NCBI GenBank assembly: GCA_002478885.1 | Contig: DLKC01000084.1 | Location: 1 to 64,000 of the forward strand | Direction of reading: 5' to 3' | Source: Chitinophagaceae bacterium UBA7600 | Lineage (GTDB): Bacteria > Bacteroidota > Bacteroidia > Chitinophagales > Chitinophagaceae | DNA: 64,000 bases | In this document: one piece after another, positions 1-64,000 of the stretch | Layout: each line of letters opens with the position of its first letter | Position numbering within the stretch: position 1 is the stretch's first letter | Notes under the pieces: generated by a model | Told to the model about the DNA's origin: nothing | The model's input: the letters and a program-made list of their open reading frames with translations, nothing else | The model's database searches: none | Translations under genes and position numbers: made by a program

Positions 1-1142
1 CGATTTTCAGGGGAGCTTACAACCGAAATAGAAAAACTTGCAGGTACCGAATCCTTTACTTCAAATAAAATTGAGTTGTGGCCTCCCGGCTGGTTATTTA
101 ATGTGTCAACACGCATGAAACCATTGATCGTGGATCGACTGTTATTGATAAAAATTTGTCGTTCGCAGAGGGGCTTATCATTTGCATCAAAAAGAGTAAC
201 CTGCAAAATACCGGGTCTGAAACTACCTACCGGTAGTATTCCGGAGATCGTTTCAGTTGTCTCAGGGTGTGCAGTCGCCCTGTATAAAATCAGGCCGTTC
301 ATTTGAGCAATTATTTTTATGTTTTTCCATTCTTGCGGAATGCTCTCCGTTCTTTGAATATGGAATTTCCGATCAAATATGCCAGGCTCAATAATCAGAC
401 TAATTCCCATTTCCTTTGCATCAGGAAGAGTTGCCCGCTGTGTTTTTCCTTCTATATCTTTCCACTCGGCTATATAACTTTCTCCTGGCAAGGGCACATA
501 GTAAAACTTGCCCATTCCATCATGGTCTGAATGAAATTCAGTCACAACCGATCCTGTTTTATCTTTTATTTCACCATCTATGCTTTGGGGCAATCCCAGC
601 CAGTTAACTGACTTAAAAGCGACAACACTTGCCTTATTAACGAGGGCGTTTCCTGATTCGGGCAGAAATTGAACGGTATTTTCTGATTGAACCGGAGCCC
701 TTTTGGCGATTTTTTTGGGTAAAGAAAAAACACCAAGGCTTTTTTGAAAGAAAAAAGCCGGGTCGAAGTTTCGCATCCATGTTGTGTAGCCAACAGCATA
801 AATGTTTGTTCCGGCGTAGGTTCCAGGTATATCAAAACTCCCGATTGAAAAACCATACGTGATAGGAGTAACTGTGGATGCGATAAACGTTCCACTGTCA
901 CTATACCAATCAACGTAAAAATTTTTTGACAGGGAATCGAGCCTGCCTGATGATGACAGGTAGGCTTTATAGAATATTGTTTGCCCGGTAAAATAATTGT
1001 TATTGTCGAACTGTATGTAAACATTTTCAACCGGGGCCAGCTCATAAAATTTCCGCAGCGCAGCATCCAATCGTTGCCCAAATATTACATTACAGGCAGT
1101 GACCGAAAGGCAGACAAAAAACAGTATTTTTTTAAGGAACAT
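1..1142 (-). CDS. MG2-domain-like secreted surface protein, 5' part only
   Basis: A frame without a stop runs from an ATG at 1142 on the minus strand to the window edge (380 codons), so only the N-terminal part is visible. The first 22 residues (MFLKKILFFVCLSV..., ending FGQ) look like a signal peptide. Next comes a segment around VYIQFDNNNYFTGQTIFYKA, which resembles the macroglobulin-like MG2 fold common in large secreted Bacteroidota proteins that often end in a TonB plug-like domain. The rest of the visible part is beta-rich and has no catalytic motif I recognise. Family assignment rests on this pattern alone. The C-terminal domains that would decide its role are outside the window. Confidence 0.8.
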   Translation of the reverse strand, partial: MFLKKILFFVCLSVTACNVIFGQRLDAALRKFYELAPVENVYIQFDNNNYFTGQTIFYKAYLSSSGRLDSLSKNFYVDWYSDSGTFIASTVTPITYGFSIGSFDIPGTYAGTNIYAVGYTTWMRNFDPAFFFQKSLGVFSLPKKIAKRAPVQSENTVQFLPESGNALVNKASVVAFKSVNWLGLPQSIDGEIKDKTGSVVTEFHSDHDGMGKFYYVPLPGESYIAEWKDIEGKTQRATLPDAKEMGISLIIEPGIFDRKFHIQRTESIPQEWKNIKIIAQMNGLILYRATAHPETTETISGILPVGSFRPGILQVTLFDANDKPLCERQIFINNSRSTINGFMRVDTLNNQPGGHNSILFEVKDSVPASFSISVVSSPEN

Positions 1143-1494
1143 AGAAGGGCAAGTGACGATGGTAGGTACAATATAAATATCCCGCCGGCAATTTAATTCA
1201 TTTATGATGGCAATGTGTTATTGCAATAGCAGTTTTTTTTGACCGTTTTGCACGTGTGGCAACCGGTGCTTGCTGGATTGGGTTATTCACAGCCGTTCGT
1301 CAATTGCTGAATGGCGAATCGTGAATGGATTTAGGAGATTTTGCCATTGCTCAGCTCTTATTTACAGTACAAGAGTGCGACGCAACGGAACTTGAGTAGC
1401 GTGATGACACCTGGTGCCTGAAAATCTTTTTTCTTCTTGTGCAGCAAAAGCATAATTATACCCGATATTTGACAGCAAGGGTAAATTTTTTTTT
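1143..1494. other. intergenic region between divergent surface-protein gene and ruvA
   Basis: This 352-bp gap separates two divergently transcribed genes, so it should hold both promoters. The one clear feature is a repeat core at 1367-1386. I saw no tRNA or hairpin terminator. An ATATTTG string about 25 bp before ruvA is close to, but not exactly, the Bacteroidota -7 box. Confidence 0.5.
1367..1386 (+). repeat. dispersed repeat core, single arm
   Basis: This is an exact copy of the 20-bp core GTACAAGAGTGCGACGCAAC. The downstream part (GATGACACCTGGTGCC near 1404) is a degenerate arm. No clear inverted partner lies upstream. Confidence 0.9.
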
Positions 1495-2082
1495 ATGATC
1501 GCATTTGTTCGAGGAAAATTTGCAAAGAAATCTCCCTCATTGGTAATTGTTGACGTAAATGGGGTAGGATATGAACTGCAGATTAGCCTGAATACTTACA
1601 CTTTTGTCAGCAATAAAGAGGAGGGCCAATTGCTTACTTATCTGCACATAACCGAGAATGGGCAGACGCTTTTTGGTTTTTTCGACCAGGAGGAAAAAGA
1701 CTTGTTTTTGCACCTGATAAGTGTGTCGGGCGTAGGCGCGTCAACTGCCAGGATGATGTTGAGCGGTCTAAGGCCGGAGGAAATAATAAAAGCCATAGTT
1801 CAGGGCAATACAAAACAACTGGAAAGCGTTAAGGGTATCGGCCGTAAAACCGGTGAGCGGCTTATTGTGGAATTAAGGGATAAACTGGGTAAAATAACCA
1901 TGGAAAACATTAGTGCCAGCGACGTAAATATACACTCTGCCGAGAAGGACGCAATTGCCGCTTTAACAGGCCTTGGAATAGCCAAGCCAATGGCAGAATC
2001 AGCGGTAAAAAAAGTTTCACAGTCTGCTAAAGAAATACTTTCTTTGGAAGAAATTATTAAACAAGCACTCAAAAACCTTTAA
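1495..2082 (+). CDS. ruvA: Holliday junction branch migration protein RuvA
   Basis: RuvA binds four-way DNA junctions as a tetramer and loads the RuvB motor during recombination and repair. The 195-residue length fits the family. The N-terminal OB-fold starts MIAFVRGKF, followed by DVNGVGYEL. Two helix-hairpin-helix motifs are visible, SVSGVGAST near residue 77 and SVKGIGRKTGERL near 112. The C-terminal third helical domain (DAIAALTGLGI...) is the RuvB-contacting part. The ATG at 1495 follows a T-rich stretch with no Shine-Dalgarno sequence, as is usual in this phylum. sprA begins 40 bp downstream on the same strand, an arrangement I recall from related genomes. Confidence 0.97.
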   Translation: MIAFVRGKFAKKSPSLVIVDVNGVGYELQISLNTYTFVSNKEEGQLLTYLHITENGQTLFGFFDQEEKDLFLHLISVSGVGASTARMMLSGLRPEEIIKAIVQGNTKQLESVKGIGRKTGERLIVELRDKLGKITMENISASDVNIHSAEKDAIAALTGLGIAKPMAESAVKKVSQSAKEILSLEEIIKQALKNL

Positions 2083-2122
2083 CCTATAGAATAGACTTCT
2101 ACTTAACCAGAGCTTTCTGAAA

Positions 2123-5100
2123 TTGACGCATTTTTTTCGTTTAATTGTAATCATCCTTTTTACTGTTTCAGGCAGCCTCTTTGTTGTAAGCGTAAAGGCT
2201 CAGAAAAAGGACAGCAAAAAAGATACTACAACACTGCATTATCCTCTAAAAGACCGCCGGGGCGACCGGTATAGCTGGCGGTATAATAATCCTTTTGACT
2301 TAACAGATACAAGCCTCATAAAACAAAATATTCAGTATGATCCTGTAACAAAGCAGTATTATATTGAAGAAAAGATCGGTGATATTGTTTACCGCAAACC
2401 TACTTACCTCTCCTTCGACGAATTTTATAAGCTTCAGACCGAGCAATCGGAGAAAGATTATTTCAATTCAAGGGCGAAAACTTTATATGACCTGAACCGG
2501 AAGATCAAGCGCCCTCCGCCGAGGGTTTACGACCAGCTGTTTGATCGCATTTTTGGTGTTGGGCCTAAAGGGCTTAAGGTTGATATTAAGCCAGAAGGAA
2601 ATGTAAATCTTACAGCCGGTTACCAGGGCCAGAACATTCAGAACCCTACGTTACCGGAAGCTGCCAGGAAAAACGGAGGTTTTGATTTTAAGGAAGATGC
2701 CAACATAAACGTAAACGGGAATATCGGTGACAAGTTAAAGTTGCCTATCAGTTACAACACGCAGGCCAACTTTGGTTTTGAAAACCAGCTAAAGCTCGAC
2801 TATAAGGGTCACGATGATGAAATAATTAAATCAGTTGAGGCCGGAAATATTTCCTTCCAGGCAAAGGGAACACTGATGGCGAGCGTGCAAAGTCTTTTTG
2901 GCGTGAAGACACAATTGCAGTTCGGCAAATTATTTATTACGGCTGCTATTGCCAACCAGAATTCTCAGCGACAGTCGATAACACTCGAAGGGGGCGGTTT
3001 AAATCAAACCATCAATAAGCGGATGGATGATTATGAAGAGAACAAGCACTTTTTGCTCGCTCAGTATTTTAGAAATAACTATAATAAAACCATGAAGAAC
3101 CTGCCGGTTGTGCAAACCCAGGTTCAGATATTAAGAATGGAGGTTTGGGTTACTAACCGCAATGGCGCTACTACCAATGTGAGAAGTATTGTTGGTCTGA
3201 TGGACCTGGCCGAGACACATCCATACAATGACACTGTTCATAGCTTAACATCGGGCGAGCTTCCTCAAAACGGTGCAAACGATCTTTATCCTTTTCTTGC
3301 GTCAAAAGATACACTGTCGAGAAACCCTTCCTACATCAATACCAGGCTGCTTCTGCGGGGCTTAAAGCCTGTAACAGATTTCGAGAAAACCTTTGCGCGC
3401 AAACTTGAGCCAAGCGAATTTTATTTTAACCCGCAAGTGGGTTTTTTATCATTAAACCAGCAATTGCAACCCGATGACGTACTGGCCGTCGCCTATCAGT
3501 ATACTTATAACGGAAAGGTTTACCAGGTCGGCGAATTTTCGCAGGACGTGACCGTTGATTCAACACAGGGTGTGCAGAAAGTTATATTCCTTAAATTGCT
3601 TAAAGCAACTTCTCAACGGCCGACGCTTCCCATATGGGGACTTATGATGAAAAACGTTTATTCTCTTGATGTAACCGGCATGCAGCGCGATGGATTTGCC
3701 ATGAACGTTTTATACCAGGAGCCGAGTGGCGGTTTGAAAAGATATCTACCGGAAACCAATGAAGCCTACTCCGGTAAACCTTTATTGACTATACTCAACG
3801 CTGATCGCCTTAATAATCGAAACGATCCATTTCCGGATGGTCAATATGATTATGTTGATAGCTTTACTGTTCTTTCGCAACAAGGCAAGATCATCTTTCC
3901 TGTACTTGAGCCGTTCGGCTCCTTTCTTGATACAACCGCTTTTAAAGGGGTTGATTCAGCTATAAAATCAAAGTATTTATACAATCAATTGTATGATTCC
4001 ATAAAAGCAATAGCGCAGACCTATGCTAACCTCGACAGGTTTTATATACAGGGCAAGATAAAAGGTAGTTCCTCTTCAGATATTTACCTTGGGGGATTTA
4101 ATATTCCACCAGGGTCGGTTAAGGTTACTGCCGGGGGGCAGCAATTACAGGAAAATGTTGATTATATAATCGATTATAACCTTGGAACATTAAAGGTAAT
4201 TAACCAGGCTATTCTTAACTCCGGGCTGCCGGTTAATGTTCAATATGAAAACAACGCCACTTATGGTATTCAGCAGCGGAGCTTTATGGGCTTGAGATTA
4301 GATTATCTCGCCAATAAGAAACTTACTGTGGGTGCTACCATGCAGCGACTAACAGAACGCCCCTATTTTACAAAAGTCAACTATGGGGAGGATCCAATTA
4401 ATAACAGGATGTATGGGGTGGACTTCAATTACCATTCTGAATTACCGGGATTAACAAGGCTACTAAATAAACTGCCTAACTATGAATCGAAGACCGTAAG
4501 TAATATCAATACATACGGAGAGGCGGCGCTAATGGATCCTGGACATCCAAGCCAAATAGGGAAAGGAAATAATGGATTAATATATATTGACGATTTTGAA
4601 GGCTCAACAAGCAGTATTGATCTTCGGTTTCCATTTGTAGCCTGGTCGCTTGCTTCAACGCCAAAAACATTTAAGGAATCTGACTCGCTGAATAGTCTTA
4701 TTTATGGTAAAAACAGGGCGAAAATTGCATGGTACAATATAGAACCCACGCTGCAGGACAAGGCGAGCCCAAATAATCCGTTGAAAAATAATTTAAAAGA
4801 ATTAAGTGATCCAAGGGTTAGAGCCGTTTACACAACCGAACTATTTCCTCAGCGAACAACAAATATAGTAGATGTACTTAATGCAACTTTTGATTTAGCC
4901 TATTATCCCACTGATCCAGGACCATACAATTTTACTTCAGATAAAGTTAATATAAACGACAAGGGTAAGCTTTCAGATCCAAAAAGCCGCTGGGGCGGTA
5001 TAATGAGAAGCATTGATCAAACTGATTTTGAAACCGGCAATATTGAATACATAGAATTTTGGGCGCAAGATCCTTTTCTGACAAACCCCAACAGCGGCGG

Positions 5101-8100
5101 AGGTAAATTAGTAGTCAATCTTGGAAATATCAGTGAAGACGTTTTAAAAGACGGGCAACGTTTTTATGAGAATGGCCTGAATACGCCGAACCAAGCAGCA
5201 GCGGTTGATACCTCAAGCGTTTGGGGCCGTGTACCGGTAAACCCGATACAAATAACACAGGCATTTAGCAATGATCCGGCAGACAGGCCTTATCAGGATG
5301 TTGGCTTTGACGGCAACAACGATGACACTGAAAGAATAAAAAGCGCTCCGTATTTGAACAGTCTTGCGACAAATTTCGGGACTGACAAAGACGTTTACAA
5401 GAATGCACAATCGGACCCCTCTCACGATAACTATAAATGGTACCGTGACGCGGCGTACGATGCAGCAGGTACTGGAATACTTGGACGCTATAAAGATTTC
5501 AACAATCCCCAGGGCAACTCGCCTGTGTCAACTGGCAATTCACCTTATTCTCCGGCTGCAACTTTATACCCCGACAACGAGGATCTTAATAGAGATAATA
5601 CGCTCAATGAAACTGAGGAGTATTATGAGTATGATATCAATTTGAAGAATAACATGAATGTGGGCGAGAATTATATCGTAGAGAAGAAGCTGATAACGCC
5701 CAGGCTTGCTGATGGAAGTGGAGGAGATCATCCTGAGTGGTGGTATCTTTTCCGGATACCAATAAAAGGGTATACCAGGAAAGAGGGCCAGATTCCCGAC
5801 TTTAAATCCATACGTTTTATCAGGATGTATATGACAGGCTTCGAGGATTCATTGGTAATGCGTTTTGCATCTTTGAACCTAGTACGAAACCAGTGGAGGA
5901 CATTTACTTATAAGTTAGATACCACCGGATCTTACACCATTGTCGATCCAGGTAAAATAAATGTTCAGGCGGTGAATATTGAGCAAAACAGTAAGCGCAC
6001 GCCTATTCCTTACAAAATCCCGCCCGGCATCGAAAGGGTGCAGTTGTTAGGAAATAATGGGGTTAATCTTTTGCAGAATGAACAATCTATGAGTTTAAAA
6101 CTCAGCAATCTGGCAAAAGGTGAATCTAGAGCTGTTTTTAAAACATTGAATCTTGACCTGCGGCAATTTGGGCAGATGTCTATGTTTATTCACGCCGAAT
6201 CAGTTGACTCATTGGCACAGCAACCTATTCAGGATAACGAAATGACCGCCGTTATAAGGATTGGACAGGATTTTTTGAATAATTACTACGAAATAAGAAT
6301 CCCTCTAAAAGTCACTCTTCCGAAAACAACGGCGACTGCTGCGGAGATATGGCCGGTCGAAAATAATCTCGATATAGTGTTAAATGATCTTGTGCAATTA
6401 AAACTGAGACGAAATACTGCTGGAAGCTCAATTAGTACTATTTACCGCGAATCACAAGGAAAAAATACCATCTCAGTATTGGGTAACCCAAATCTTGGCG
6501 AAGTTCAGGGGTTCCTGATCGGCATTGAAAATACCAACAAGAATTCGCCTGCCTATGCGGAGGTTTGGGTTAACGAACTGAGGCTGTCGAGGATAGATGA
6601 GAAAGGCGGATGGGCTGCGCTTGGCAGAGCGGATATTCAATTGGCTGATCTTGGTACTTTATCCATATCGGCCAACACCTATACGCAGGGCTTCGGCACT
6701 ATTGAACAACGTGCCAATGAAAGAGCAAGAGATAATATGTTGCAATTTGATGCAGCACTTACACTTGATCTTGGAAAGTTGATGCCTAAAAAAGCAGGTG
6801 CTACTATTCCGGTATATGCAAGTATAAATAAGACTTTACTTACGCCTGAATATGATCCTTATGATCTGGACGTAAAATATAAATACAAATTGTCAACAGG
6901 GGGCGATAAGAAGGATTCAATCAGAAATGTGGCCAGGGACGAAACCACCATTAAAACAATTAACTTCACAAACGTGCGCTTTGGCCAAACCGGTTCAAAG
7001 CCTAAGCTGTGGAGCCTTAGCAATTTTGATTTTACCTATTCCTTTACTCAATTCGAGCAAACGACTCCTTTAATCCTGCTTAATAAGGTGGCAAAACACA
7101 GGGCTGGCATGGGTTATACCTATTCAAGCAATTCGAAGTTTATTGAGCCGATGAAAAATATAAGGAACAAAAGCCCATGGCTTACCTGGTTGCGTGATTT
7201 TAATGTAAATCCGGTTCCCTCCTTATTGAGTTTCAGGGCAGATATCAACAGGCAGTTTGGCCGATTTACACCACGCATTGTAAATACTTTCGACAGCAAA
7301 GTTGAACGCGTTGATACCACTTACGATAAGTATTTCACTTTCGACAGGTATTATAATCTTCGTTGGGATCTGACACGGAGCCTGAACTTCGACTTTAGTG
7401 CTACTAATTTCGGTCGTGTGGATGAACCGTATGGGTTACTCAATACCAAATCGAAAAAAGACACCGTGCGAAGTAATTTTTTCAAAGGTGGCCGGCCTAC
7501 TTTGTATCAGCAAAGAGCGGTGTTTAGTTACAATGTACCCTTGGCAAAGCTTCCGGCCACCGACTGGATCAATATGCGGTATAGCTATACCACAACCTAT
7601 AATTGGATTGGCGCCAGCCAGCTTGCACGTGAACTCGGCAATATTGTTGAAAACAGTCAGCAGAATGCATTTAACACAGAGTTCGATTTTACGCGGTTGT
7701 ATTCAAAATCAAAATGGCTTGACAAAGCAATGCAGCCAAGGATCAGGGATGATGCTGAGGACAGCAGCGGCAACAACAATCTTGATCAGAACAGGCCTAA
7801 CGACACCACTATTGTTGTCAAGCCGCGTTCAGAGGTAGTAAAAGGTCTGTCAGGCAGTAAAAAGAAAGATGCACTGCGTAAATGGAGAAAACAAAAACGC
7901 CTTGCACGTAAACAAAAACGCGACAACAAGCAGATAGAAGGCCCGGGAGGTGCTGTAAAAGCAGCCGTTGGCGTGGTTACAATGGTTAAAAGAGTGTCGG
8001 TGAATTACAGCGCGAATTTCAACAGCCGGGTTCCGGGTTATACCGATAGTTCAAAGATTCTGGGGTCAAATTTCAAAAGTATGCAGCCCGGCCTCGATTA

Positions 8101-9376: not shown

Positions 9377-9402
9377 AACTTTCTGTTAAGAATTTTTTGT
9401 CG

Positions 9403-9598
9403 CCGGCTTTTATTGCCAATGGCATCATCGTTGCGTCGCACACTTGTGCTGCAAATCATTGCGCGGCTATTAAGATTTTTGCCAATGATTCACCAGGTAA
9501 GCAGTCGAAGAAACGGTTAAACAAGTATATTGCTGCATAAAGAATCAAACGTACAAGAGTGCGACGCAACAAAAGCAACATAGTATTGATATGCCGGG
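9403..9598. repeat. paired inverted-repeat element between sprA and mbnP-like gene
   Basis: The left arm has its outer end CCGGCTTTTATTGCC at 9403 and its core at 9430-9449 (minus orientation). The right arm has an exact core at 9551-9570 (plus orientation) and ends GCCGGG near 9598. The arms enclose about 100 bp of unrelated sequence. The right arm overlaps the 5' end of the next reading frame. Confidence 0.88.
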
Positions 9599-10320
9599 TA
9601 CATAAAAGCATCGCTATAGCCAAAGCGCTTTTATGTTTTGCGTGCATGGTTCTTTCTGGTGCAACTTTTGCTCAACATTCGATTAGCATAAAATTTGAAA
9701 ATTATGCGGGCACAGAATTATTACACGTTCAGCAGACCTATATTAATGGAGCTGGCGAGCAGTTTACAGTGCGCAATTTCCGCTACTATATTTCGAACAT
9801 TGTTTTGAAAAATAAACTGCAGAGCGAAACTCATGAAGGGTATTTTCTTATTGACCAATCGGATGATGCTTCAAAGGAAATTATACTGCAAACAAATTTA
9901 GACAGTGTTTCTGCTATTCAATTCCTGCTTGGTGTTGATAGTTTAAGAAACGTTACCGGCGTTCAAACCGGAGCGCTCGACCCTGCGATGGATATGTATT
10001 GGACCTGGAATACGGGTTATGTAATGGCTAAACTCGAAGGCAGCTCAACAGGCGCTAATACGCCGAGGCACATCTTTAGTTATCATGTCGGCGGTTATAA
10101 AGAAGGCGAGCAAACTACAAGAAACATTAAACTTTCTTTCAATACGGTTGACTTTGTAAGGCCAAAAAAAATTATTTATATAAGCGCTGATATATTAAAA
10201 TGGTTTGATGGCAAAAACAAAATAAGCATTGCCGCAACACCGCTTTGTCATGAACCCGGGAAACTAGCGGTAATGCTTGCTGATAATTATGCTGCAATGT
10301 TTAGCATGCAAAAGGAATGA
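9586..10320 (+). CDS. MbnP-like copper-binding periplasmic protein
   Basis: The product resembles the MbnP family: a secreted beta-rich protein with the motif MYWTWNTGYV, then HIFSYHVGGY, and a C-terminal CHEPGKLA region. In characterised MbnP a tryptophan is oxidised to kynurenine by the di-haem partner MbnH and helps bind copper. The next gene overlaps by 4 bp (ATGA) and encodes such a partner, which supports the assignment. The frame is open from a GTG at 9559 that lies inside a repeat core. TTG at 9586 gives a shorter, conventional signal peptide (MICRVHKSIAIAKALL...FAQ) and is the start used here, but it is uncertain. No methanobactin precursor or biosynthesis gene was seen. Confidence 0.82.
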   Translation: MICRVHKSIAIAKALLCFACMVLSGATFAQHSISIKFENYAGTELLHVQQTYINGAGEQFTVRNFRYYISNIVLKNKLQSETHEGYFLIDQSDDASKEIILQTNLDSVSAIQFLLGVDSLRNVTGVQTGALDPAMDMYWTWNTGYVMAKLEGSSTGANTPRHIFSYHVGGYKEGEQTTRNIKLSFNTVDFVRPKKIIYISADILKWFDGKNKISIAATPLCHEPGKLAVMLADNYAAMFSMQKE

Positions 10321-11390
10321 AGTGGATAAGCACTATATTATTTGTTGCATTGATTTTGCTGGTTGCCATTTCATGGCATGATCGGAAACCTGCGGTTCAT
10401 TCAATTAGCTTTACTGTGCCGAAAGGCTGGCCGCAACCCGTGTACGATTTTAAAAGCAATCCAATAACAGAAGAAGGCTTTCAACTTGGAAGAAAATTGT
10501 TCTATGACGGCCGCTTAAGTAAAGATGGCAATTTCGCCTGCGCATCCTGTCACCAGCAGTTTGCAGCATTTGCAACCTATGACCATGAATTGAGCCACGG
10601 CAACAATAACTCGTTTACAAGACGCAATGCACCTGCGCTGTTCAATCTTGCATGGCAGCCCGAATTTATGTGGGATGGCGGCATCAACCACCTGGACGCC
10701 CAACCGTTGGCGCCCATTACAGATACCAATGAAATGGCTGAGACAATTGGGAATGTAATTTCAAAACTAAAAGCCGATACCGGGTATAGAAGAATGTTCA
10801 AGGCTGCCTTTGGCGATGAGACCATCAATACGCAGCGCATGACCAAAGCAATCAGCCAATTTGTGGTCATGTTGGTAAGTAACAACAGCAAATACGACCG
10901 GGTAAAAAGGGGAGAAGACAGTTTTAATTTGCCACAGCGGCTGGGCTACCAGATTTTCCAGAAAAAATGTATTGGCTGCCACACCGAGCCATTATTCACC
11001 GATTATAGTTACCGCAATATTGGCTTGCCCGAAGATGATTTTCTGCATGATAAAGGAAGAATGAAAATCACCAGCAAATCATCAGACTCCCTGAAATTTA
11101 AAGTGCCTAGTCTTCGCAACGTGGCGCTCAGTTTTCCTTATTCGCACGATGGAAGATTTTATACACTGCTTGATGTAATGGAGTTTTACAGGCACAGTAA
11201 TCCTGCAGGCGCTTCTGTTGATTCATCCGTTAAACATGGAATTCCACTCAGTAATTTTGAGATAGGACAATTAACCGCATTTATGAAATCGCTGACGGAT
11301 TCAGCCTTTATCAATAATCCGCGATTTGCCCCACCAGGCTTCGAAACAAGAATGCCGGCGGCCCAGCCTGATATACATAAATCGAACTAA
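10317..11390 (+). CDS. MbnH/MauG-like di-haem cytochrome c peroxidase family protein
   Basis: This is a 357-residue protein with an N-terminal membrane or signal segment and two haem c attachment sites, CASCH at residues 75-79 and CIGCH at 218-222, the hallmark of the CcpA/MauG/MbnH superfamily. The start codon overlaps the stop codon of the MbnP-like gene (ATGA), so the two are probably translationally coupled. By analogy with MbnH it would oxidise a tryptophan in its partner. Ordinary hydrogen-peroxide reduction cannot be excluded. The segment TRRNAPALFNLAWQPEFMWD (about residues 101-120) is a conserved family stretch. It acts in the periplasm and depends on cytochrome c maturation genes outside the window. 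Confidence 0.9.
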   Translation: MKWISTILFVALILLVAISWHDRKPAVHSISFTVPKGWPQPVYDFKSNPITEEGFQLGRKLFYDGRLSKDGNFACASCHQQFAAFATYDHELSHGNNNSFTRRNAPALFNLAWQPEFMWDGGINHLDAQPLAPITDTNEMAETIGNVISKLKADTGYRRMFKAAFGDETINTQRMTKAISQFVVMLVSNNSKYDRVKRGEDSFNLPQRLGYQIFQKKCIGCHTEPLFTDYSYRNIGLPEDDFLHDKGRMKITSKSSDSLKFKVPSLRNVALSFPYSHDGRFYTLLDVMEFYRHSNPAGASVDSSVKHGIPLSNFEIGQLTAFMKSLTDSAFINNPRFAPPGFETRMPAAQPDIHKSN

Positions 11391-12227: not shown

Positions 12228-12440
12228 GTCGGCTGTATATTTTCATAGCGTCGCCTGTTGTGTCACTCACTTGTGCTGTAAAACTTTGGGCGGCAAACAG
12301 TAATTTTAGCGCGGTAAAATAAAACATCAAAGCTTTTGAAAATAGTGCTGCTACTTGCAACACGCCGCTGGCAGCTCATATTTATTCTGCAGTACAAGAG
12401 TGCGACGCAACTAAATTTAACAAACGATTTGGTGTCGGGT
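12228..12440. repeat. paired inverted-repeat element with one variant arm
   Basis: The left arm core at 12257-12276 is the variant form GTTGTGTCACTCACTTGTGC. The right arm core at 12392-12411 is the standard form. The outer ends are TCGGC near 12229 and GTCGGG near 12439. The element fills most of the 301-bp gap between the SDR gene and the adhesin gene, and nothing else was seen there. Confidence 0.85.
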
Positions 12441-12466
12441 AACAAGAGAAAAGGTACCTGAATTAC

Positions 12467-15957: not shown

Positions 15958-16007
15958 CTTGTGTAATGTCTGTTTTTTAGTTGAATAAGTCAAAATACAT
16001 TTAAATA

Positions 16008-16203
16008 CCGGCTTTTAAGCCTTGATTAGGCTTTGTTGCGTCGCAATCCGTTCATCTGTATTGCACAGATTGAGCAAGATACTGTTCCTCCGTTAGCAAG
16101 TTTGCATATGTGCGGCTGGTTATATAAGTCAACATTGCTGAATTAAAAATGAAAGTACAAGAGTGCGACGCAATGGCTGTTGCTATTTGAGCTAAAGCTG
16201 GGT
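16008..16203. repeat. paired inverted-repeat element upstream of hydrolase operon
   Basis: The left arm starts CCGGCTTTTAAGCC at 16008 and has the core GTTGCGTCGCA at 16035. The right arm core at 16155-16174 ends AAT in place of AAC, and the arm ends AAAGCTGGGTT near 16203. The arms enclose about 110 bp. Confidence 0.86.
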
Positions 16204-16210
16204 TAAGAAA

Positions 16211-19695: not shown

Positions 19696-20271
19696 TTTTA
19701 TATGCCCAGCATTCGAATAAGTATTGAACGCTTATTACTCGATAGTGCCGGCTTATCCGGCATCGCACGCTTCGGAGTTCTGTAAACTATTCTTCAATAA
19801 ATAAGCCCTGTTATATTATTCGGGTACAAGGAAAACTGCCGATAGTTGATTTGAACGTACAAGAGTGCGACGCAACGAGGCTGAAGATAATTCAGGAGCC
19901 TGGCTCACCATTCATGCTTTATTTCCTGCGACCCGTTAAGACTTTCCATTTTAATGATATCATGTCTATTCCATTCGTCTGCGTAGGTATTAGAGTAGTC
20001 TTAAGAATTGCCAGCCGCGTTCTAATGATTTCCAAAAGCTGGCGTGAAAAAACGGTGACTTAAAATTGATATTCTTTGATTCAAAAATGAGATTGGCCTG
20101 GTCGTTAATAACGGAATTTGCAAACGTGAATTGCAAAAGGGCGTTGGCCAGGAATAGAATCTAATAGCACCTTTCTGTTCAGAGGCTGCTGTGGGTAGCA
20201 ACATAACAAGTAAAATAATTAACGGCAATATTGATATGGTTGCCCGTTACCTCCTCCAAAAATAATAACAT
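19696..20271. other. 576-bp region with no confident gene
   Basis: It holds a repeat element (19748-19905). On the minus strand near 19990-20228 short frames in two phases look like a broken secreted-protein gene: MPLIILLVMLLPTAASEQKG in one phase, then FANSVINDQANLIFESKN in another. Evidence for a pseudogene is weak. Confidence 0.4.
19748..19905. repeat. paired repeat element, left arm degenerate
   Basis: The right arm core at 19857-19876 is exact and is preceded by TTGAAC. A degenerate left arm (CCGGCTTATCCGGCATCGCA) starts at 19748. The right outer end is near GCCTGGCTC at 19899. Confidence 0.7.
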
Positions 20272-22455: not shown

Positions 22456-22470
22456 AGCCAATATCATGTA

Positions 22471-22600
22471 CCCGGCCGTTGTTGCCTATGGCATCACCCG
22501 TTGCGTCGCACACTTGTACGGCAGATCAATTGCCAGCAAACCAACAGCCTGCTGAATAAAGTTCCGAACGTAGAAGTGAGTGACACAACAGGCGCCGGGT
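22471..22600. repeat. short paired repeat element with one variant arm
   Basis: The left arm core at 22500-22519 is standard (minus orientation). The right arm core at 22570-22589 is the GTGAGTGACACAAC variant. The outer ends are CCCGGCC at 22471 and GCCGGG at 22599. The inner spacer is only 50 bp, the shortest in this window. Confidence 0.88.
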
Positions 22601-22652
22601 AAAGAACCTGGTGCCGGTAAAAAATAATACACCTGCATAGAAGAATCATCGA

Positions 22653-26289: not shown

Positions 26290-27478
26290 TTTTTCCCTGG
26301 CGGTCATGACTTCTTTTTGCCTTGAGTATGGAAATATATCGGCACGGGGTTTTATGATGCTGGCTGTTTATTCTCTCAAACTATTGATTGCAATTCCATT
26401 CGATTTACTGCAACGAATATTCTATGGACGAAAAATAAACACAACAAAAATTACCAAAGCGCCGATTTTCATCATCGGGCATTACAGGAGCGGAACAACC
26501 TATATGCACACACTTTTAGCCAAAGATGAACGATTTGCCAGTTTGAGTAATTACGATATGATCTGTCCCTGCTCAAGCCTTTTGTTCGGTGCCGGTTTGA
26601 AGCGATTCTTACAATCGGTCATAAACCTGTTTCAGATAAAGACTTCAATGTTTAATAATAAAATCCCTGACCTGGATGAACCGGCGGAAGAAGACCGGTT
26701 TTTAATAAACAAAGCCGCTGCCTGCACCGATTACTGGGGGTTTCTTTTCCCCAGTAACAAGGATGGCTTGCAGCAATGTAGTGCCGGTTTAGCAGACGAC
26801 AGAAACTTCAACGCGTGGAAAAGCGCATACCTTGAATTGCTGCAACTGATCACGTATAAACATCATGGAAAGCAACTTGTGCTAAAGAGCCCCGCGAATA
26901 CCATGCGTATAAAATACCTGCTCCGGATATTTCCCGACGCAAAATTTATCTACCTGTATCGAAACCCATACGATGTGTTTTATTCCATGCGCAACCTGTG
27001 GATGCGATCGATCCGCAAATACTGCCTGCAGCAGGTAAGTAAGGAAGCGATAGCGGAAATTGTGCTGACCCACTTTGCCGCAATGATGGAGCAGTACGAA
27101 AAAGATAAAGCTCTCATTCCACCGGAGAACCTGTTTGAACTGCAATATGAACAGTTTGAAAAAGACCCGTTTGCCTGTATAAAGGAAATATATGAAACGC
27201 TTGGATTGCCTTCTTTTGATGCGTTTAGCGAAAGCCTGGGTAAACAGGTTTGTAAAGAGAGAGCCTATCAAAAGTTCCGGCACAAGCGGGATGCCGGGAC
27301 GACGGAGGCGATTGGCATGAGATGGGAGAAATATATTAAACAGTGGAAAGAACACAACGACCGCAATATGAAGCTGCCGGGTGAGCTGAACGTACAAGCG
27401 TGCGACGCAAGGGACGATGCTATGAAAGCATATCGCCCGGATCAACAATTGCCTGCTTATTCTAACGCCATTTTATGA
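26252..27478 (+). CDS. PAPS-dependent sulfotransferase family protein
   Basis: The product has 408 residues. The PAPS 5'-phosphosulfate loop is GHYRSGTTYMH near residues 77-86, and the 3'-phosphate region is LYRNPYDVFYSMR near 231-243. An N-terminal hydrophobic segment (about 33-55) may anchor it to the membrane. It would transfer sulfate to a hydroxyl, plausibly on the operon's lipid. The start overlaps the GNAT gene by 38 bp (ATG 26252) or 26 bp (ATG 26264). The last about 30 codons are built from a dispersed repeat (27392-27443), so the C-terminus is probably an acquired tail. The radical SAM gene overlaps its stop codon. Confidence 0.88.
   Translation: MRYIMSKRQRTYNFSLAVMTSFCLEYGNISARGFMMLAVYSLKLLIAIPFDLLQRIFYGRKINTTKITKAPIFIIGHYRSGTTYMHTLLAKDERFASLSNYDMICPCSSLLFGAGLKRFLQSVINLFQIKTSMFNNKIPDLDEPAEEDRFLINKAAACTDYWGFLFPSNKDGLQQCSAGLADDRNFNAWKSAYLELLQLITYKHHGKQLVLKSPANTMRIKYLLRIFPDAKFIYLYRNPYDVFYSMRNLWMRSIRKYCLQQVSKEAIAEIVLTHFAAMMEQYEKDKALIPPENLFELQYEQFEKDPFACIKEIYETLGLPSFDAFSESLGKQVCKERAYQKFRHKRDAGTTEAIGMRWEKYIKQWKEHNDRNMKLPGELNVQACDARDDAMKAYRPDQQLPAYSNAIL
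27392..27443 (+). repeat. repeat arm inside the sulfotransferase reading frame
   Basis: The core GTACAAGCGTGCGACGCAAG differs from consensus by two bases and is preceded by TGAAC as in other copies. The arm runs on to CGCCCGG near 27440. It is read in frame as VQACDARDDAMKAYRPD at the protein C-terminus. Confidence 0.85.
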
Positions 27479-28698: not shown

Positions 28699-29160
28699 TT
28701 TTTTTGTCCCCGGCTTTGGCAACACAGTGGCAGCTTCCGTTGCGTCGCACTCTTCAACTTTCTTATCGCAGTTCAGCCATACCAAAACATAAAAGGATAC
28801 CACTTTTCAGTGATATCCTTCCAGGAATTTTAAAACGGGGAATCAGTTTTCTGGGCTGAGATACTATTCGGAGTATCAACTTCCTCGTTTCCAAAGGGCT
28901 TCTTAAATTAACAATGGTATTCAGTCGGTTGATACATTCGCTAAAAATGCACCGGATATTGAACATTTATTGTATCAGTTCTTTATGCCTGCTATCGCTG
29001 CCTGCTTCTCAAATTTAAACAATCTTCCTTTCCTGAAACAGCTACCGCTCCAATATTTTATTTATTACTATATAAAAGTAAATGAATTGATACATCTGTC
29101 TTTTGCAAACTTATTCACACTGTTGTATAAGTTAAGTGGCTTGTATAGGAGAACCATCAA
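28699..29160. other. 462-bp gap after the lipid operon
   Basis: It contains one half repeat element (28708-28758) and an imperfect inverted repeat AAGGATACCACT / AGTGATATCCTT (28793-28820) that could be a terminator. Two short frames were judged non-coding. Confidence 0.5.
28708..28758 (-). repeat. single repeat arm after the lipid operon
   Basis: The arm has outer end CCCGGCTTTGGCAAC at 28708 and core GTTGCGTCGCACTCTTCAAC at 28739-28758. No right arm was found. Confidence 0.85.
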
Positions 29161-33166: not shown

Positions 33167-33460
33167 AAAGACAGGTTAACAGGTGACGGAATATTTATTG
33201 TAAAACTATACAGTAGATAAATCCGTTGCCGCTACATAAGTATGTGGGTATATAAGCGCTAACACAATATGTCAACTATTCCAGGCGGTATGGCTGGTTT
33301 TTGAATAGTTGTTTTTATGGTGACCGCTTGATAAGCGGACAAAAAGCTAAACGGAGCGTCGCAAGCAAAGCTTAATGCTTGTACAGGCGCCGGCGACTAA
33401 ATAAATATTTCTTTATTCGTCTTTGCTATCGCAATATCTTAGCAGTTAAAAAATAGTAAC
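33167..33460. other. divergent promoter region
   Basis: This 294-bp gap between divergent genes has a hairpin CCGCTT-GAT-AAGCGG (33324-33338). A GCGTCGCAAGC string near 33357 faintly resembles the repeat core but was not counted as a copy. Confidence 0.4.
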
Positions 33461-35852: not shown

Positions 35853-35930
35853 TAGTCTGGTTGAAGCCGGCATTACCAGTTTACGAATCACCTATTTATC
35901 TACCCTTATCTACCCACAAATATCTTTTAG

Positions 35931-36096
35931 GCCCGGCAATGGTACAACATGGCGGCATTACTTGCGTCGCACACCCGCGCGGCTGGTTCACGAATGGGCT
36001 TTCAACAACAATAAAATGAAGGTTGCTGCATTTGTTCCGCAGCACAATTATTCGATACCAGTTAAGGCAGCATTGCCACGCAACAGCAGTCGCCGG
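35931..36096. repeat. repeat element, left arm clear and right arm degenerate
   Basis: The left arm starts GCCCGGCAATGG at 35931 and has core CTTGCGTCGCACAC at 35961-35974. The right arm is only suggested by CACGCAACAGCAG near 36077 and GCCGG at 36092. Confidence 0.6.
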
Positions 36097-40688: not shown

Positions 40689-40825
40689 GTGTAAAAATTG
40701 TGGTTTTTAATCAGGTAATTCAATATTCCGGTAAAGGGCTATCGAATGTTGTTATTGCAGGGCTGTGAATTTTGCAGACCATTTGCTATTACCTGGCAAT
40801 CTTGTTGAAAATAGTTCAGGACCCT

Positions 40826-40872
40826 GAAGTGTGCGACGCAACAGGCCTTGAGCATTGTGCAAAAGCCGGGTT
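40826..40872 (+). repeat. single repeat arm
   Basis: The core GAAGTGTGCGACGCAAC is followed by a complete outer arm ending AAAGCCGGG at 40870. This is the best-preserved right arm in the window. No left partner was found. Confidence 0.85.
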
Positions 40873-40900
40873 CAGAAAAAGACCTAAATCTACAGGTTAA

Positions 40901-44616: not shown

Positions 44617-44706
44617 ATAACTGTAGCCGGAGTTTTACAAAACAAGCTTCGACATGGGTAAATCGAAAGCGGATGGCAGGGAGAGCTGCCATTCTCGTTG
44701 AACGAT

Positions 44707-44752
44707 GAAGTGTGCGATCCCGAATCGTCCCTCCCGGGACAGGCGCAACAGG
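44707..44752 (+). repeat. repeat arm interrupted by a 26-bp insert
   Basis: GAAGTGTGCGA (44707-44717) and CGCAACAGG (44744-44752) would join to the normal core if 44718-44743 were removed. The insert has inverted ends TCCCG and CGGGA. Confidence 0.6.
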
Positions 44753-44823
44753 TGCTGAACAGCGTTATAATGCTGGCGACAAAAAAATCGATCTTTTAAT
44801 AACCCGGGTATCAATTCCAGCAA

Positions 44824-48407: not shown

Positions 48408-48417
48408 CTTTGTTTGC

Positions 48418-48462
48418 GGGCTGTAGCCTTTCATGGCATCGGCTCTTGCGTCGCACTCTTCG
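48418..48462 (-). repeat. single repeat arm
   Basis: The core CTTGCGTCGCACTCTT (48445-48460) is preceded by a left arm including TGGCATC. No right arm was found. Confidence 0.8.
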
Positions 48463-48511
48463 GCTTTGGTAACACTAAATAAAAGCCGCTATTTTATAAA
48501 ATGAACATTTG

Positions 48512-51625: not shown

Positions 51626-51757
51626 TTTTTCTGCTGCAAAAGAACTGCGCAATAAACGAGCATGCTTACGGAATCGGAAACGCTGTTTACGCAATCGGTA
51701 AATTGATTTTCAGAAAGCAGCAAACGTTGTTGAAGATAATGGAGCTGTTTTTTATGT

Positions 51758-51931
51758 ACCAGGCTTCACCACTTTGTGGGGCTGCTGTTGCGTCGCACAC
51801 TTCAGCTGCAGTGGTGCTGTGCCCGGTTTGGCTATGGTTAACAAGTATACTACGGAGTATTAGAAAAATGTTTTTGTTTTTGGTGACCTTTGCGCAAGGC
51901 GCACAAGAGTGTGATGCCTGATAATCCGGCA
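51758..51931. repeat. paired repeat element downstream of dnaE, right arm degenerate
   Basis: The left arm core is at 51787-51802, followed by CAG and later TGCTGTGC, as in the copy upstream of dnaE at 55725. The right arm core GCACAAGAGTGTGATGC (51901-51917) is degenerate. The element fills most of the gap between dnaE and the receptor gene. Confidence 0.8.
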
Positions 51932-55661: not shown

Positions 55662-55695
55662 ATCCTGGTTCCTCTGTATTTTATATTTTTTCGAG

Positions 55696-55742
55696 CCTGG
55701 CTTCAATATCAGTATTTGGCTGTTGTTGCGTCGCACACTTCA
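55696..55742 (-). repeat. single repeat arm upstream of dnaE
   Basis: The core GTTGCGTCGCACACTT is at 55725-55740, preceded by CCTGGCTTC at 55697. It lies 35-80 bp before the dnaE start, so it could sit in the promoter or leader. Confidence 0.85.
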
Positions 55743-55925
55743 GGTTCCGGGAATGCTGTGCGGACAACAAATGCCACAGGCTCAAGTCAATTTGCGAATT
55801 TCGCCATTTGCAGGCAGTGAAAGAAGCCAATATTTATCCACATCCTGCGTTTCCCTCGTAGAATTACCAAAAAGTTTTTCACTTCATTTGCCCTGAACGG
55901 CTGATGGGCTTAAATTGCAACGTTG

Positions 55926-56603: not shown

Positions 56604-56669
56604 CCAGCGCACGGTGTTCACTTGCGAGCTAGTCTGAGCAATTGCTTTTTGCCCCGTTCCGATAGAGGT

Positions 56670-56689
56670 GTACAAGTGAGTGACACAAC
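56670..56689 (+). repeat. variant repeat core
   Basis: GTACAAGTGAGTGACACAAC is the variant form with the paired base change. It is followed by an arm containing GCTGATAGCAGC. A possible left partner near 56613 (GTGTTCACTTGCG) is too degenerate to call. Confidence 0.8.
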
Positions 56690-56752
56690 AACTGCTGATA
56701 GCAGCACCGCAGCCCGCTCCATTATTGTCTTAGTATTTCAAACGAGCAACTG

Positions 56753-58300: not shown

Positions 58301-58465
58301 AAAATGCATTTTTAGCCCGGCAACTTTTGTAAATCGTTGGGAACAGCTTTGCAGAAAATAAAAAGAAAGAGAAGTGAGTTGCGGTCTAACAAGTTAACCT
58401 ATATAAACTGAACGGTCAATTAAAATAAAAGGGCAACCTTTAAAGCAGGGCAATTGAATAGTGGG

Positions 58466-58598
58466 GCCGGCATTTCGCGTCCATCAGCTGCTGTTGCGTC
58501 GCACACATGTGCTGAATATCTTTTTTCGTCAAACGTGAAAGACATGCGTTAAATTCTGACTATCACCTTTTACATTTCACGACGCAACATATAGCGCC
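58466..58598. repeat. repeat element, right arm partial
   Basis: The left arm starts GGCCGGCATTT at 58466 with core GTTGCGTCGCACACATGT at 58493. A partial right core CACGACGCAAC is at 58578-58588. A further AGTGACACAA near 58611 resembles the variant core. The gap 58301-58666 contains nothing else I can support. Confidence 0.65.
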
Positions 58599-61302: not shown

Positions 61303-61315
61303 AAAAATAAACCTC

Positions 61316-61345
61316 TTTTGTTTTTCAATTCTACCACTATATTTG
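61316..61345 (+). promoter_or_regulatory. promoter of the SRP RNA
   Basis: A -33 element TTTTG (61316-61320) and a -7 element TATATTTG (61338-61345) are separated by 17 bp, matching the Bacteroidota consensus TTTG...TAnnTTTG. The RNA start is predicted 6 bp downstream. Confidence 0.75.
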
Positions 61346-61350
61346 CAGCG

Positions 61351-61442
61351 GCAGGTCTTACACGACCAGCTCCTGCTGAACCCTCCCAGGGCAGGAATGC
61401 AGCAAGAGTAGGCGGTTGAGCGGTGCGATGTAATAAGCCTGC
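61351..61442 (+). ncRNA. ffs: small signal recognition particle RNA (4.5S-like)
   Basis: This 92-nt RNA forms one long hairpin: 5' GCAGGTCTT pairs with 3' AAGCCTGC. The conserved SRP54-binding apical region is CAGGGCAGGAATGCAGCAAG, with a GGAA tetraloop closed by GCA/TGC. It is the small bacterial type without an Alu domain. It binds Ffh and targets inner-membrane proteins. A T-rich tail follows (ATTTTTTTATTTT). Confidence 0.93.
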
Positions 61443-61542
61443 CATTTTTTTATTTTACCCCCAAGTCTCCTGACGGGGTATATCAAATGCTCAGGATTAA
61501 CTAAACAAAAATTTTACCGCCACAGCAGCGGTTTCGTGCAGC

Positions 61543-62193: not shown

Positions 62194-62198
62194 CAATG

Positions 62199-62227
62199 AT
62201 CCCCGCAGAAGCGGGGATTTTTTTTAA
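62199..62227 (+). terminator. terminator of fsa
   Basis: The stem ATCCCCGC-AGAA-GCGGGGAT is followed by TTTTTTT. Confidence 0.92.
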
Positions 62228-62884
62228 TATCTTTTTGAACCCGGCTTTAGTGCCGTTGGCAACTGCTGTTGCGTCGCACACTTGTGCAACAAAACTTTAC
62301 GCTGCTATGAAACTGCCCGGTTATGACTGATGAAACAGGCCACCTCTTTACATGCTTCCTTAAACAAGAATAACAACCAGGAATTTAATATCCCGGTTGT
62401 TACTAGTAATTCTTGTGCTTTTTCAAAAGCATTTTAGGGGTAAGGGGTCAAAAAAAGGGGCACACTAACACCGCAAATATTCAAACTTCTCTATGCCATT
62501 GAAACTGGAATAAAAGAACAGGCTGAACTACGGTTTGAAATACAACTACAAAAAATACTTAGCCGGTACACGTGCTCAGGCAGTATACCTATCTTGTGTA
62601 AAACAATAATCAGGGAAACGAAATAAAAACGGACGATCCGGTAAAAAGTCGCTGATACGGTTTGAGTCAGGCAAATAAATATTAGCAAGAAAAATCGAAG
62701 ATTTTCTCATAGCAAATATTGGATTGGAGGTTTTTATTTGGTCGTCAGAAGGTGCGGAATTAACGATTGGAATTTTTCAACTGGTCAGGAGTGATACTGT
62801 GTAAAGATAGGTGTTATCATTAAAAAAATCACTTTCGCAAAAAAAATTATTAACAAATATGGATAAATATTTTTTAACGGCTGT
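62228..62884. other. 657-bp region with repeat arm, long hairpin and possible HTH remnant
   Basis: After a repeat arm (62239-62287) there is an imperfect hairpin with AACAACC / GGTTGTT and flanking CAAGAAT / ATTCTTG (62365-62414). Beyond this, around 62645-62800, plus-strand frames read KKSLIRFESGK then, after a stop, ILARKIEDFLIANIG, which resembles a decayed XRE-type helix-turn-helix protein. No intact gene was found. Confidence 0.4.
62239..62287 (-). repeat. single repeat arm after fsa
   Basis: The outer end ACCCGGCTTTAGTGCC is at 62239 and the core GTTGCGTCGCACACTTGTGC at 62268-62287. The complete left arm is the closest to the inferred consensus. Confidence 0.88.
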
Positions 62885-63319: not shown

Positions 63320-63511
63320 GTCAATTGTTTGTGGATTTGAATTGGTCGGGCAAAGTTGTGCTGTTATCTATGCAATAATAACATTTTTATTATTTTCTTT
63401 TCATTATTCTGTCCGCTTTGATGAGTGCCGCCATTTACCGGTAAAAGAAATAATATTTGGTAAATACTGCGATCAACAAATATGCAGGTTAATTTTACCA
63501 AAATAAAAGTC

Positions 63512-63895
63512 ATGAAAAAAATATTACTCACCTTACTCATCTTATTTTCGATTTTTATTATGGCAAATGCACAGAATAATAATCAGCAGCAGGTTCTTAG
63601 ACATGTGGTAATGTTTGGCTGGAAAGAAGGAACAGATTCTGCCTACATAGGAAAAATAGTAGAAGCCTTTAAGGCATTGCCGGGCAAAATTCCTTTGATC
63701 AAAGCATTTGAGTGGGGGACCAATAACAGCCCTGAAGGATTAAACCAGGGGCTGAAGTATTGCTTTTTTGTGACTTTCACCAGCGAGGCCGACAGAGATG
63801 CTTACCTGGTTGATCCGGCACATAAGGCATTTGTAGCTTTGTTGAAGCCGGCTCCGGAAAAAGTTACGGTACTCGATTATTGGGCACAACAATAA
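63512..63895 (+). CDS. secreted Dabb (stress-responsive A/B barrel) protein
   Basis: The product has 127 residues from the ATG at 63512. A further ATG at 63482 would add ten residues before the signal peptide and is disfavoured. The signal peptide ends NAQ. The mature part is a single ferredoxin-like A/B barrel: VLRHVVMFGWKEGTD, IKAFEWGTNNSPEG, and DPAHKAFVALLKP. Family members dimerise, and their role is usually unknown. Secretion is typical in Bacteroidota. Confidence 0.92.
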   Translation: MKKILLTLLILFSIFIMANAQNNNQQQVLRHVVMFGWKEGTDSAYIGKIVEAFKALPGKIPLIKAFEWGTNNSPEGLNQGLKYCFFVTFTSEADRDAYLVDPAHKAFVALLKPAPEKVTVLDYWAQQ

Positions 63896-63986
63896 ATTGA
63901 ATGTTTCGCTGCGGGAACGTTGTCTCGGGCGGTTTAAATAATGGTTGTTTATAGCGCGTCCGCTTTTGGTTCACCAGGGATATGTA

Positions 63987-64000
63987 GTACAAGTGTGCGA
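63987..64000 (+). repeat. repeat core cut by window end
   Basis: GTACAAGTGTGCGA matches the first 14 bases of the core and runs off the window edge. Confidence 0.75.

What the first reader, a model, noticed from the sequence alone, without database searches (positions are those of the whole stretch)
1..64000. Dense family of dispersed inverted-repeat arms with a 20-bp core
About 25 copies or part-copies of GTACAAGAGTGCGACGCAAC occur in 64 kb, nearly all between genes. Each belongs to an arm of about 45-50 bp with outer end CCGGCTTT...TGCC...GGCATC. Arms occur singly or as head-to-head pairs around 50-115 bp of unrelated sequence (9403-9598, 12228-12440, 16008-16203, 22471-22600, 51758-51931). 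This resembles REP/BIME or MITE families, but I cannot match it to a named one and no transposase is in the window. Function, mobility and host range are open.
Basis: partly seen in the sequence, partly recalled or inferred. Interest (0 to 1): 0.78.

Follow-up and report, generated by a model that had tools for sequence, protein, structure and literature searches.

The report
Conserved-core intergenic repeats of Chitinophagaceae
Some Chitinophagaceae bacteria carry a thousand or more copies of an apparently undescribed 75-letter DNA element packed into the gaps between genes; the element has come and gone between related species, yet its central 16-20 letters change little, which suggests that an unknown protein recognises them.

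Summary
The repeat is real and was under-described. A profile of the arm finds 21 clear copies in the window and 190 in 464 kb of its genome, none in the reversed control; the strict core occurs about 1,180 times in 5.47 Mb. The arm is about 76 bp (inner motif TGCTSA, core GTACAAG[A/T]GTGCGACGCAAC, outer end GCCGGGTACAAAAA), not 45-50. Cores were found in 204 of 394 Chitinophagaceae genomes (0 to 2,206 copies) and 0 of 23 genomes of other families. It is not a REP: single arms do not fold. Close pairs are inner-end to inner-end (43 of 43 here, 28 of 29 elsewhere). Outer ends hug genes (median 12 bp from stop codons). Related species show occupied and empty sites, without target duplications. 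At orthologous places in two species the core changes about ten times more slowly than its linkers (2 of 112 against 74 of 391 positions); over all pairs about four times. The core switches between two states with few intermediates. I read it as a once-mobile intergenic element whose core is now a maintained protein-binding site; protein and benefit are unknown. RAYT, terminator, cassette and uptake-sequence readings were tested and not supported. In other genomes short hairpins insert at the core's centre (30 of 30 inspected).

The parts
1348..1401 (+). arm, exact core at 1367-1386
   Evidence: E 3.3e-08
9394..9460 (-). left arm of a pair, 18 bp after a stop codon (gene 2123-9376)
   Evidence: E 6.3e-10
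9531..9605 (+). right arm of the pair, exact core 9551-9570
   Evidence: E 2.8e-12
12229..12295 (-). left arm of a pair, core of the GAGTGACACAAC type
   Evidence: E 1.1e-07
12374..12444 (+). right arm of the pair, exact core 12392-12411
   Evidence: E 7.8e-10
16006..16045 (-). partial left arm of a pair
   Evidence: E 6.8e-04
16136..16209 (+). right arm of the pair, core 16155-16174
   Evidence: E 1.1e-10
19837..19907 (+). arm, exact core 19857-19876; a faint match at 19698-19732 (E 4.9) may be chance
   Evidence: E 2.7e-11
22466..22538 (-). left arm of a pair, 11 bp after a stop codon, core 22500-22519
   Evidence: E 6.5e-12
22550..22623 (+). right arm of the pair, core of the GAGTGACACAAC type
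   Evidence: E 4.6e-10
27379..27445 (+). arm overlapping the 3' end of ORF 26354-27478
   Evidence: E 8.7e-08
28701..28777 (-). arm starting 3 bp after a stop codon (gene 27589-28698)
   Evidence: E 2.9e-11
33354..33400 (+). weak arm
   Evidence: E 0.014
35925..35974 (-). arm
   Evidence: E 1.3e-06
40804..40878 (+). arm, outer end 23 bp from the 3' end of the sulfatase-like gene 40901-42607
   Evidence: E 5.5e-11
44690..44785 (+). arm, longer than the model (96 bp matched)
   Evidence: E 1.5e-04
48410..48477 (-). arm
   Evidence: E 2e-07
51751..51811 (-). left arm of a pair between a TonB receptor gene and dnaE
   Evidence: E 1.3e-10
51890..51916 (+). faint right arm of the pair, 68 bp from the 3' end of dnaE
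   Evidence: E 1.2; weak
55689..55751 (-). arm between dnaE and an NlpC/P60 gene; it overlaps the called dnaE start, which may be about 26 codons too early (most relatives match from residue 26-28)
   Evidence: E 9.8e-09
56651..56722 (+). arm, core of the GAGTGACACAAC type, between convergent genes
   Evidence: E 7.2e-10
58462..58523 (-). arm, core 58493-58512
   Evidence: E 3.9e-07
62232..62298 (-). arm, core 62268-62287, after the transaldolase-family gene and a terminator-like hairpin
   Evidence: E 4.9e-14
63972..64000 (+). arm cut by the window end
   Evidence: E 0.12

Best explanation
A Chitinophagaceae-specific family of short non-coding DNA elements, built of a 76-bp arm that stands alone or as an inner-end-to-inner-end pair. 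Shown: the arms lie almost only in the gaps between genes, show no strand preference, and differ by presence and absence between related species, so they are gained or lost as units. Shown, in one genus and on few sites: at places shared by two related species the core is kept while its linkers drift like the flanks; and the core exists in two states that differ as a block of three bases. Inferred: the arm is the recognition site of a sequence-specific, probably dimeric, DNA-binding protein (dyad TTGYG-A-CRCAA) coded elsewhere; the family was spread by that protein (as transposon-end-like sites) or by a lost one, and the site has since been kept for a job at transcription-unit boundaries, most likely chromosome organisation or insulation.
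For: Copy number and host range. Profile and reversed control. Pair orientation 43 of 43, 28 of 29 in other genomes. Hugging of gene ends. Gaps of at least 100 bp with an arm: convergent 25 of 31, tandem 77 of 131, divergent 20 of 40. Occupied and empty sites. Core conserved at orthologous sites: G024-G212, 8 pairs, 2 of 112 core against 74 of 391 linker positions differ (Fisher P 4e-7); over the 22 accepted pairs 19 of 305 against 243 of 1,028 (nominal P 3e-13; some arms enter several pairs). Two-state core: own genome 137 TCG, 44 ATA, 5 other of 186, against 103 other expected if independent; all genomes pooled 281, 66, 20, against 179. Arms at like gene junctions in G092 and G171, whose aligned DNA is 71-78% identical. 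No folding of single arms, so recognition is more likely of DNA sequence.
Against: No protein was found, and no function was shown. 30 of the 49 genes lying between - and + arms were scanned: 22 have ordinary Pfam families, 8 none. No target duplication. The orthologous-pair test rests on few sites in one genus, on arms that the profile found in both species, on linker identity at least 0.6 and a first core with at most 5 mismatches; 4 of 26 pairs were dropped. Of 10 G024 arms with a matching G212 stretch, 2 had no G212 arm. Several accepted pairs differ at 2-3 of 14 core positions, partly as state switches. In G260 and G300 most of these places have a decayed arm or none, so the site is dispensable there.
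Confidence: 0.55

Rival explanations
1. Ordinary MITE: inner-facing pairs are the two ends of a non-autonomous transposon, single arms are remnants, and the transposase is lost or elsewhere; no function.
For: Pairs are always - then + with outer ends outside (43 of 43); occupied and empty sites; consecutive arms alternate across genes more than by chance (-gene+ 23 against 14.8 expected, p 0.003); at two junctions beside dnaE the window and UBA4407 have single arms of opposite orientation, as if each kept one half of a pair.
Against: No target duplication; core conserved at shared sites; 97 of 173 arms single; no transposase among 30 of 49 inner-flanked genes.
Confidence: 0.25
2. DNA-uptake sequence: the core is what a competence protein binds, and biased uptake keeps it intact.
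For: Copy number (about 1,180 per 5.47 Mb) and two 'dialects' resemble uptake sequences; core held at shared sites; decay in some species; 9- and 10-base pieces of core type B are somewhat commoner in coding DNA than reversed ones (28 against 15, 7 against 3).
Against: 6 of 175 placed arms lie in genes, against 65% of H. influenzae uptake sequences in ORFs as quoted in PMC2346458 (passages); pieces of type A show no surplus, no 12-base piece of either type occurs in 378 kb of coding DNA, and near-matches to the 16-mer are no commoner than reversed ones; arms come and go as units, not by point mutation.
Confidence: 0.07
3. REP/BIME-like element moved by a RAYT (Y1) transposase.
For: Dispersed, intergenic, near stop codons; some Y1 genes have arms within 1.5 kb.
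Against: Single arms do not fold; Y1_Tnp has no match in G163 with 1,570 copies or G024 with 265, and occurs in genomes without cores such as G021 and G063.
Confidence: 0.04
4. Bidirectional transcription terminator or roadblock.
For: Hugs stop codons; commonest between convergent genes.
Against: Half of the longer divergent gaps carry arms too (20 of 40); terminator-like hairpins are about as common with arms as without (convergent 14 of 30 against 7 of 13, tandem 22 of 85 against 25 of 103, divergent 7 of 20 against 3 of 24).
Confidence: 0.06

Closest known systems
Neisserial dRS3 / NIME elements
   Same: 20-bp repeats, hundreds per genome, intergenic, together with short stretches of other repeats; a dRS3 type is the integration target of a filamentous phage (PMC3898611, passages). 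Here too short hairpins insert at the core's centre.
   Different: Unrelated sequence (dRS3 is ATTCCC-N8-GGGAAT); the arm is 76 bp; orientation of pairs is fixed; at most two arms per gap in the sample, no long arrays.
MITEs (for example Correia elements, recalled)
   Same: Short, non-coding, inverted-repeat pairs, between genes.
   Different: No target duplication seen; more than half of arms single; core maintained at shared sites.
GTAG and CGTC REPs, BIMEs
   Same: High copy number, extragenic, dimers.
   Different: REPs are short palindromes (PMC3733652, passages); the single arm does not fold.
DNA uptake sequences (DUS, USS)
   Same: Copy number, conserved core with looser flanking motifs, two variants.
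   Different: Almost absent from genes; gained and lost as units.

Membership tests
REP/BIME | unit is a palindrome that folds into a hairpin | tested here: not met
   60 of 185 arms folded, mean z 0.00 (one strand) and 0.20 (other)
REP/BIME | RAYT (Y1) transposase gene in the genome (for GTAG REPs) | tested here: not met
   0 Y1_Tnp matches in G163 and G024, which carry arms; present in most other carriers searched
REP/BIME | GTAG or CGTC tag at the foot of the hairpin | tested here: not met
   no hairpin; core starts mostly GTAC, also GCAC, GTTG or GTAG
MITE | terminal inverted repeats at both ends | tested here: inconclusive
   pairs have them (43 of 43 in one orientation) but 97 gaps hold one arm and 38 hold two
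MITE | target-site duplication | tested here: not met
   longest shared word of the flanks 4.10 against 4.26 in re-paired controls, 41 pairs; old copies could have lost it
MITE | empty sites in relatives | tested here: met
   for example 71 bp in G024 against 8 bp in G143; direction of change not tested by a tree
MITE | related autonomous transposon | tested here: inconclusive
   none among 30 of 49 inner-flanked genes scanned; only parts of the genomes were read
DNA uptake sequence | raises DNA uptake | not testable with these tools
   needs a transformation assay
DNA uptake sequence | found in coding and non-coding DNA | tested here: not met
   6 of 175 in genes; no 12-base piece of the core in 378 kb coding, slight surplus of 9-10-base pieces of type B
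dRS3/NIME | ATTCCC-N8-GGGAAT 20-mer | tested here: not met
   core sequence differs
Rfam families | score above a curated threshold | tested here: not met
   only the small SRP RNA is hit in the window

The most novel reading that the evidence does not exclude
The arms are a genome-wide set of one to two thousand maintained DNA sites, seeded by a mobile element and kept because an unknown protein binds them at transcription-unit boundaries: a bacterial insulator or nucleoid-site system of a kind that I do not know to be described in Bacteroidota, with two interchangeable core codes.
Probability: 0.3. Interest if true: 0.85.

Novelty: new variant of a known kind. Interest (0 to 1): 0.62.

Why it matters
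If the core is really held by selection at hundreds of intergenic places, an unknown DNA-binding protein shapes the chromosomes of many Chitinophagaceae, and it can be fished out with a 20-bp bait. Panacibacter ginsenosidivorans, a named species with a one-contig genome and 1,570 core copies, gives a test organism. It would also be a clear bacterial case of a mobile element turned into a site kept genome-wide, with relatives (G260, G300) in which it is falling apart.

Tried and rejected
RNA structure: single arms fold no better than shuffles; real pairs fold no better than re-paired arms (z -2.83 against -3.68), so pairing between arms is not kept. RAYT: no correlation. Autonomous copy: 30 of the 49 genes lying between - and + arms (intervals under 4 kb) were scanned in Pfam: 22 ordinary, 8 without a family, no transposase. 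Terminator: no clear difference. Gene-cassette exchange at arms: arms at 8 of 30 gene-scale indel junctions against 11 of 33 other junctions (P 0.6, junctions not independent); against this, -gene+ order is above chance. Uptake sequence: longer partial cores not enriched in genes, 9-10-base pieces of type B slightly so. Target duplication: none seen. Protein-coding reading: the core reads V-Q-(E/V)-C-D-A-T in one frame, but the base profile shows little synonymous variation; rejected by inspection only. Papers: a search by core letters gave 0 papers; topic searches were seen as listings of 8-20 papers each, and none of the titles and abstract starts describes this repeat; the library holds only open-licence PMC papers, and only passages of PMC3733652, PMC3898611, PMC10969869 and PMC2346458 were read. 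Plasmids: no match of window 1-25000.

Limits: genes were called with a script of my own, so distances are approximate; 464 kb of 5.47 Mb of the own genome was read; loci L001-L030 were not used for counts; the profile was retrained on its own hits (162 hits at E<=1e-3 in the first round, 190 in the third, 0 in the control each time); 15 of 190 arms lacked a neighbour gene and were left out. In pooled counts related genomes share arms.
Full report
Observation. The 20-bp core occurs 11 times at up to 3 mismatches in the window, never in 100 shuffles, and 603 + 575 times in the 5.47-Mb genome against 0 for the reversed pattern. Around the core, 111 copies show further conserved pieces: an inner motif (T)TGCTSA about 14-20 bp before the core, G(A/C)TG(A/C) just after it, and an outer end AAAGCCGGGTACAAAAA, with loose linkers between. 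A profile of this arm (75-76 positions), retrained on its own hits, finds 190 arms at E<=1e-3 in 464 kb (window plus 20 stretches), none in the reversed sequence; 21 are in the window.

Layout. Successive arms under 400 bp apart are inner end to inner end in 43 of 43 cases (arms at E<=1); in other genomes, under 200 bp, 28 of 29. A gap never holds more than two arms in the sample: 97 gaps hold one, 38 hold two. Of 190 arms, 169 are intergenic, 6 in called genes and 15 not placeable; 93 outer ends face the 3' end of a gene, median 12 bp from the stop codon, and 76 face a 5' end, median 69 bp. Other genomes show the same tendency less sharply (g92 median 24 and 81 bp; G212 51 and 57; g120 43 and 74 with none within 15 bp). 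Arms make up about 17% of the non-coding bases of the sample. Neither strand is favoured, nor 3' over 5' facing in tandem gaps (56 against 50), so the signal is more likely read in DNA than in RNA.

Host range. With GTACAAGNGTGCGACGCAAC at up to 2 mismatches, 204 of 394 genomes of the family match, 74 of 101 genera; 0 of 23 genomes of other families of the order (rows). Counts run from 0 to 2,206 (G230); a count of one or two by this pattern need not be a whole arm. The family is Chitinophagaceae by the titles of the nearest dnaE loci and protein hits. G163 (1,570 copies, one contig of 5,528,026 bases) is Panacibacter ginsenosidivorans by an identical protein on a contig of that length. Of 80 named dnaE loci (pieces of 3.7-11.7 kb), only L089 (MAG UBA4407) and L129 carry an arm.

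Gain and loss. In genus g25 (G024, G212, G143, G260, G300; most aligned genes about 77-90% identical) arms are present in some species and absent in others at the same gene junction. At one convergent junction G024 has an arm within a 114-136-bp stretch where G143, G260 and G300 have at most 10 bp; at another an arm of about 70 bp faces 8 bp in G143 (G300 has 28 bp and G260 140 bp without an arm); G212 has a whole pair where G024 has 4 bp, while G260 and G300 have 113-118 bp of other sequence. Which state is older was not tested by a tree; insertion is the simpler reading for the first. I see no target duplication.

Maintenance. For arms at the same place in G024 and G212 (8 pairs) 2 of 112 invariant core positions differ, against 74 of 391 linker and 66 of 446 flank positions (P 4e-7); over the 22 accepted of 26 pairs 19 of 305 against 243 of 1,028. 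Dropped were three pairs with linker identity under 0.6 and one whose first core was broken by a hairpin. Both arms had to be found by the profile, so badly broken cores could be missed: of 10 G024 arms with a matching G212 stretch, 8 had a G212 arm and 2 did not. In G260 and G300 most of these places have no arm or a decayed one, with core identity no better than linker identity in G024-G260 and G143-G260 (0.58 against 0.54, 0.55 against 0.60). In G092 and G171 (71-78% identical) five of the six junctions between aligned blocks carry arms in both at like places; at the sixth both have an arm, but G171 has about 4 kb more. In G171 a gene lies between - and + arms at two of these junctions where G092 has no gene.

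Two-state core. Three core positions take TCG or ATA: 137 and 44 of 186 in the own genome, 5 other, against 103 expected if independent; pooled over genomes 281, 66 and 20, with 29 further arms broken. Two of the three positions mirror each other about the centre A of TTGYG-A-CRCAA, as in a dimer site. At one shared place (G024 and G212 against G143) the state differs while linkers are 77% alike.

Hairpins in the core. In G171, G230 and G125, 30 of 30 inspected copies of CCCCGAGTTCCGC (of 42 found in 11 genomes) sit inside an arm's core, 29 at its centre and one two bases before it; UBA4407 has one too, and other short palindromes lie at or within a few bases of the centre in G024, G143, G260, G212 and G383. 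Read on the other strand, many have CCTG before the hairpin, the anatomy of a tagged REP (inference). The window's genome has no CCCCGAGTTCCGC. So the core's centre is a preferred landing point in several genera.

Mechanism. Arms behave as units that come and go between genes, and as sites whose core is kept. The best reading is a transposon-end-like, multi-part binding site for a dimeric protein, once used for spreading and now retained. What the protein does is open; boundary marking or chromosome organisation fits the placing best. Against this stand the lack of a protein, and the decay of arms in close relatives.

What it is not. Not a REP (no fold; no Y1 match in two carriers). Not a proven MITE (no duplication, no transposase in what was scanned). 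Terminator and cassette tests gave nothing, apart from a surplus of -gene+ order (p 0.003). Uptake sequence: unlikely because arms avoid genes and come as blocks.

Noticed in passing
L239-L268 (centre of each locus); L089:9183; L174:7624; L185:18715; L187:11020; L083:7587: Short palindromes inserted at or close to the dyad centre of arm cores in several genera, many followed by CAGG (CCTG on the other strand); 30 of 30 inspected copies of one type lie in cores. Looks like REP-type elements that target the arm.
   Followed up: partly
L089:2885-2960 and 3849-3924 against window 56651-56722 and 55689-55751: At two junctions around the NlpC/P60 gene beside dnaE, the window's genome and UBA4407 each have one arm but in opposite orientation, as if each had kept a different half of a pair.
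   Followed up: no
L183:5402-5455, L176 about 7530-7630, L179 about 1380-1500: A GAGCTRYGAGC-type low-order repeat fills the gap at one junction; in G212 it lies between two arms.
   Followed up: no
L068:10611-10641 and 11342-11388: A second dispersed inverted repeat in genus g25, seemingly unrelated to the arm (many short matches).
   Followed up: no
L215:1413 and 2245; L219:1280: Y1 transposase genes preceded by hairpins of their own (AACCTTTTTGTAGAAAAGGTT; ATTCGACCCTGAAAGGGTCGAAT): possible RAYT/REP pairs in this family.
   Followed up: no
window 61342-61448: Bacteroidales small SRP RNA (Rfam RF04183).
   Followed up: no
window 51984-55736: dnaE; the called start may be about 26 codons upstream of the real one and overlaps an arm.
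   Followed up: partly
G396 (3 copies) among g120 genomes with 78-625 copies: Copy number collapses within a genus, useful for finding the missing factor by gene content.
   Followed up: no
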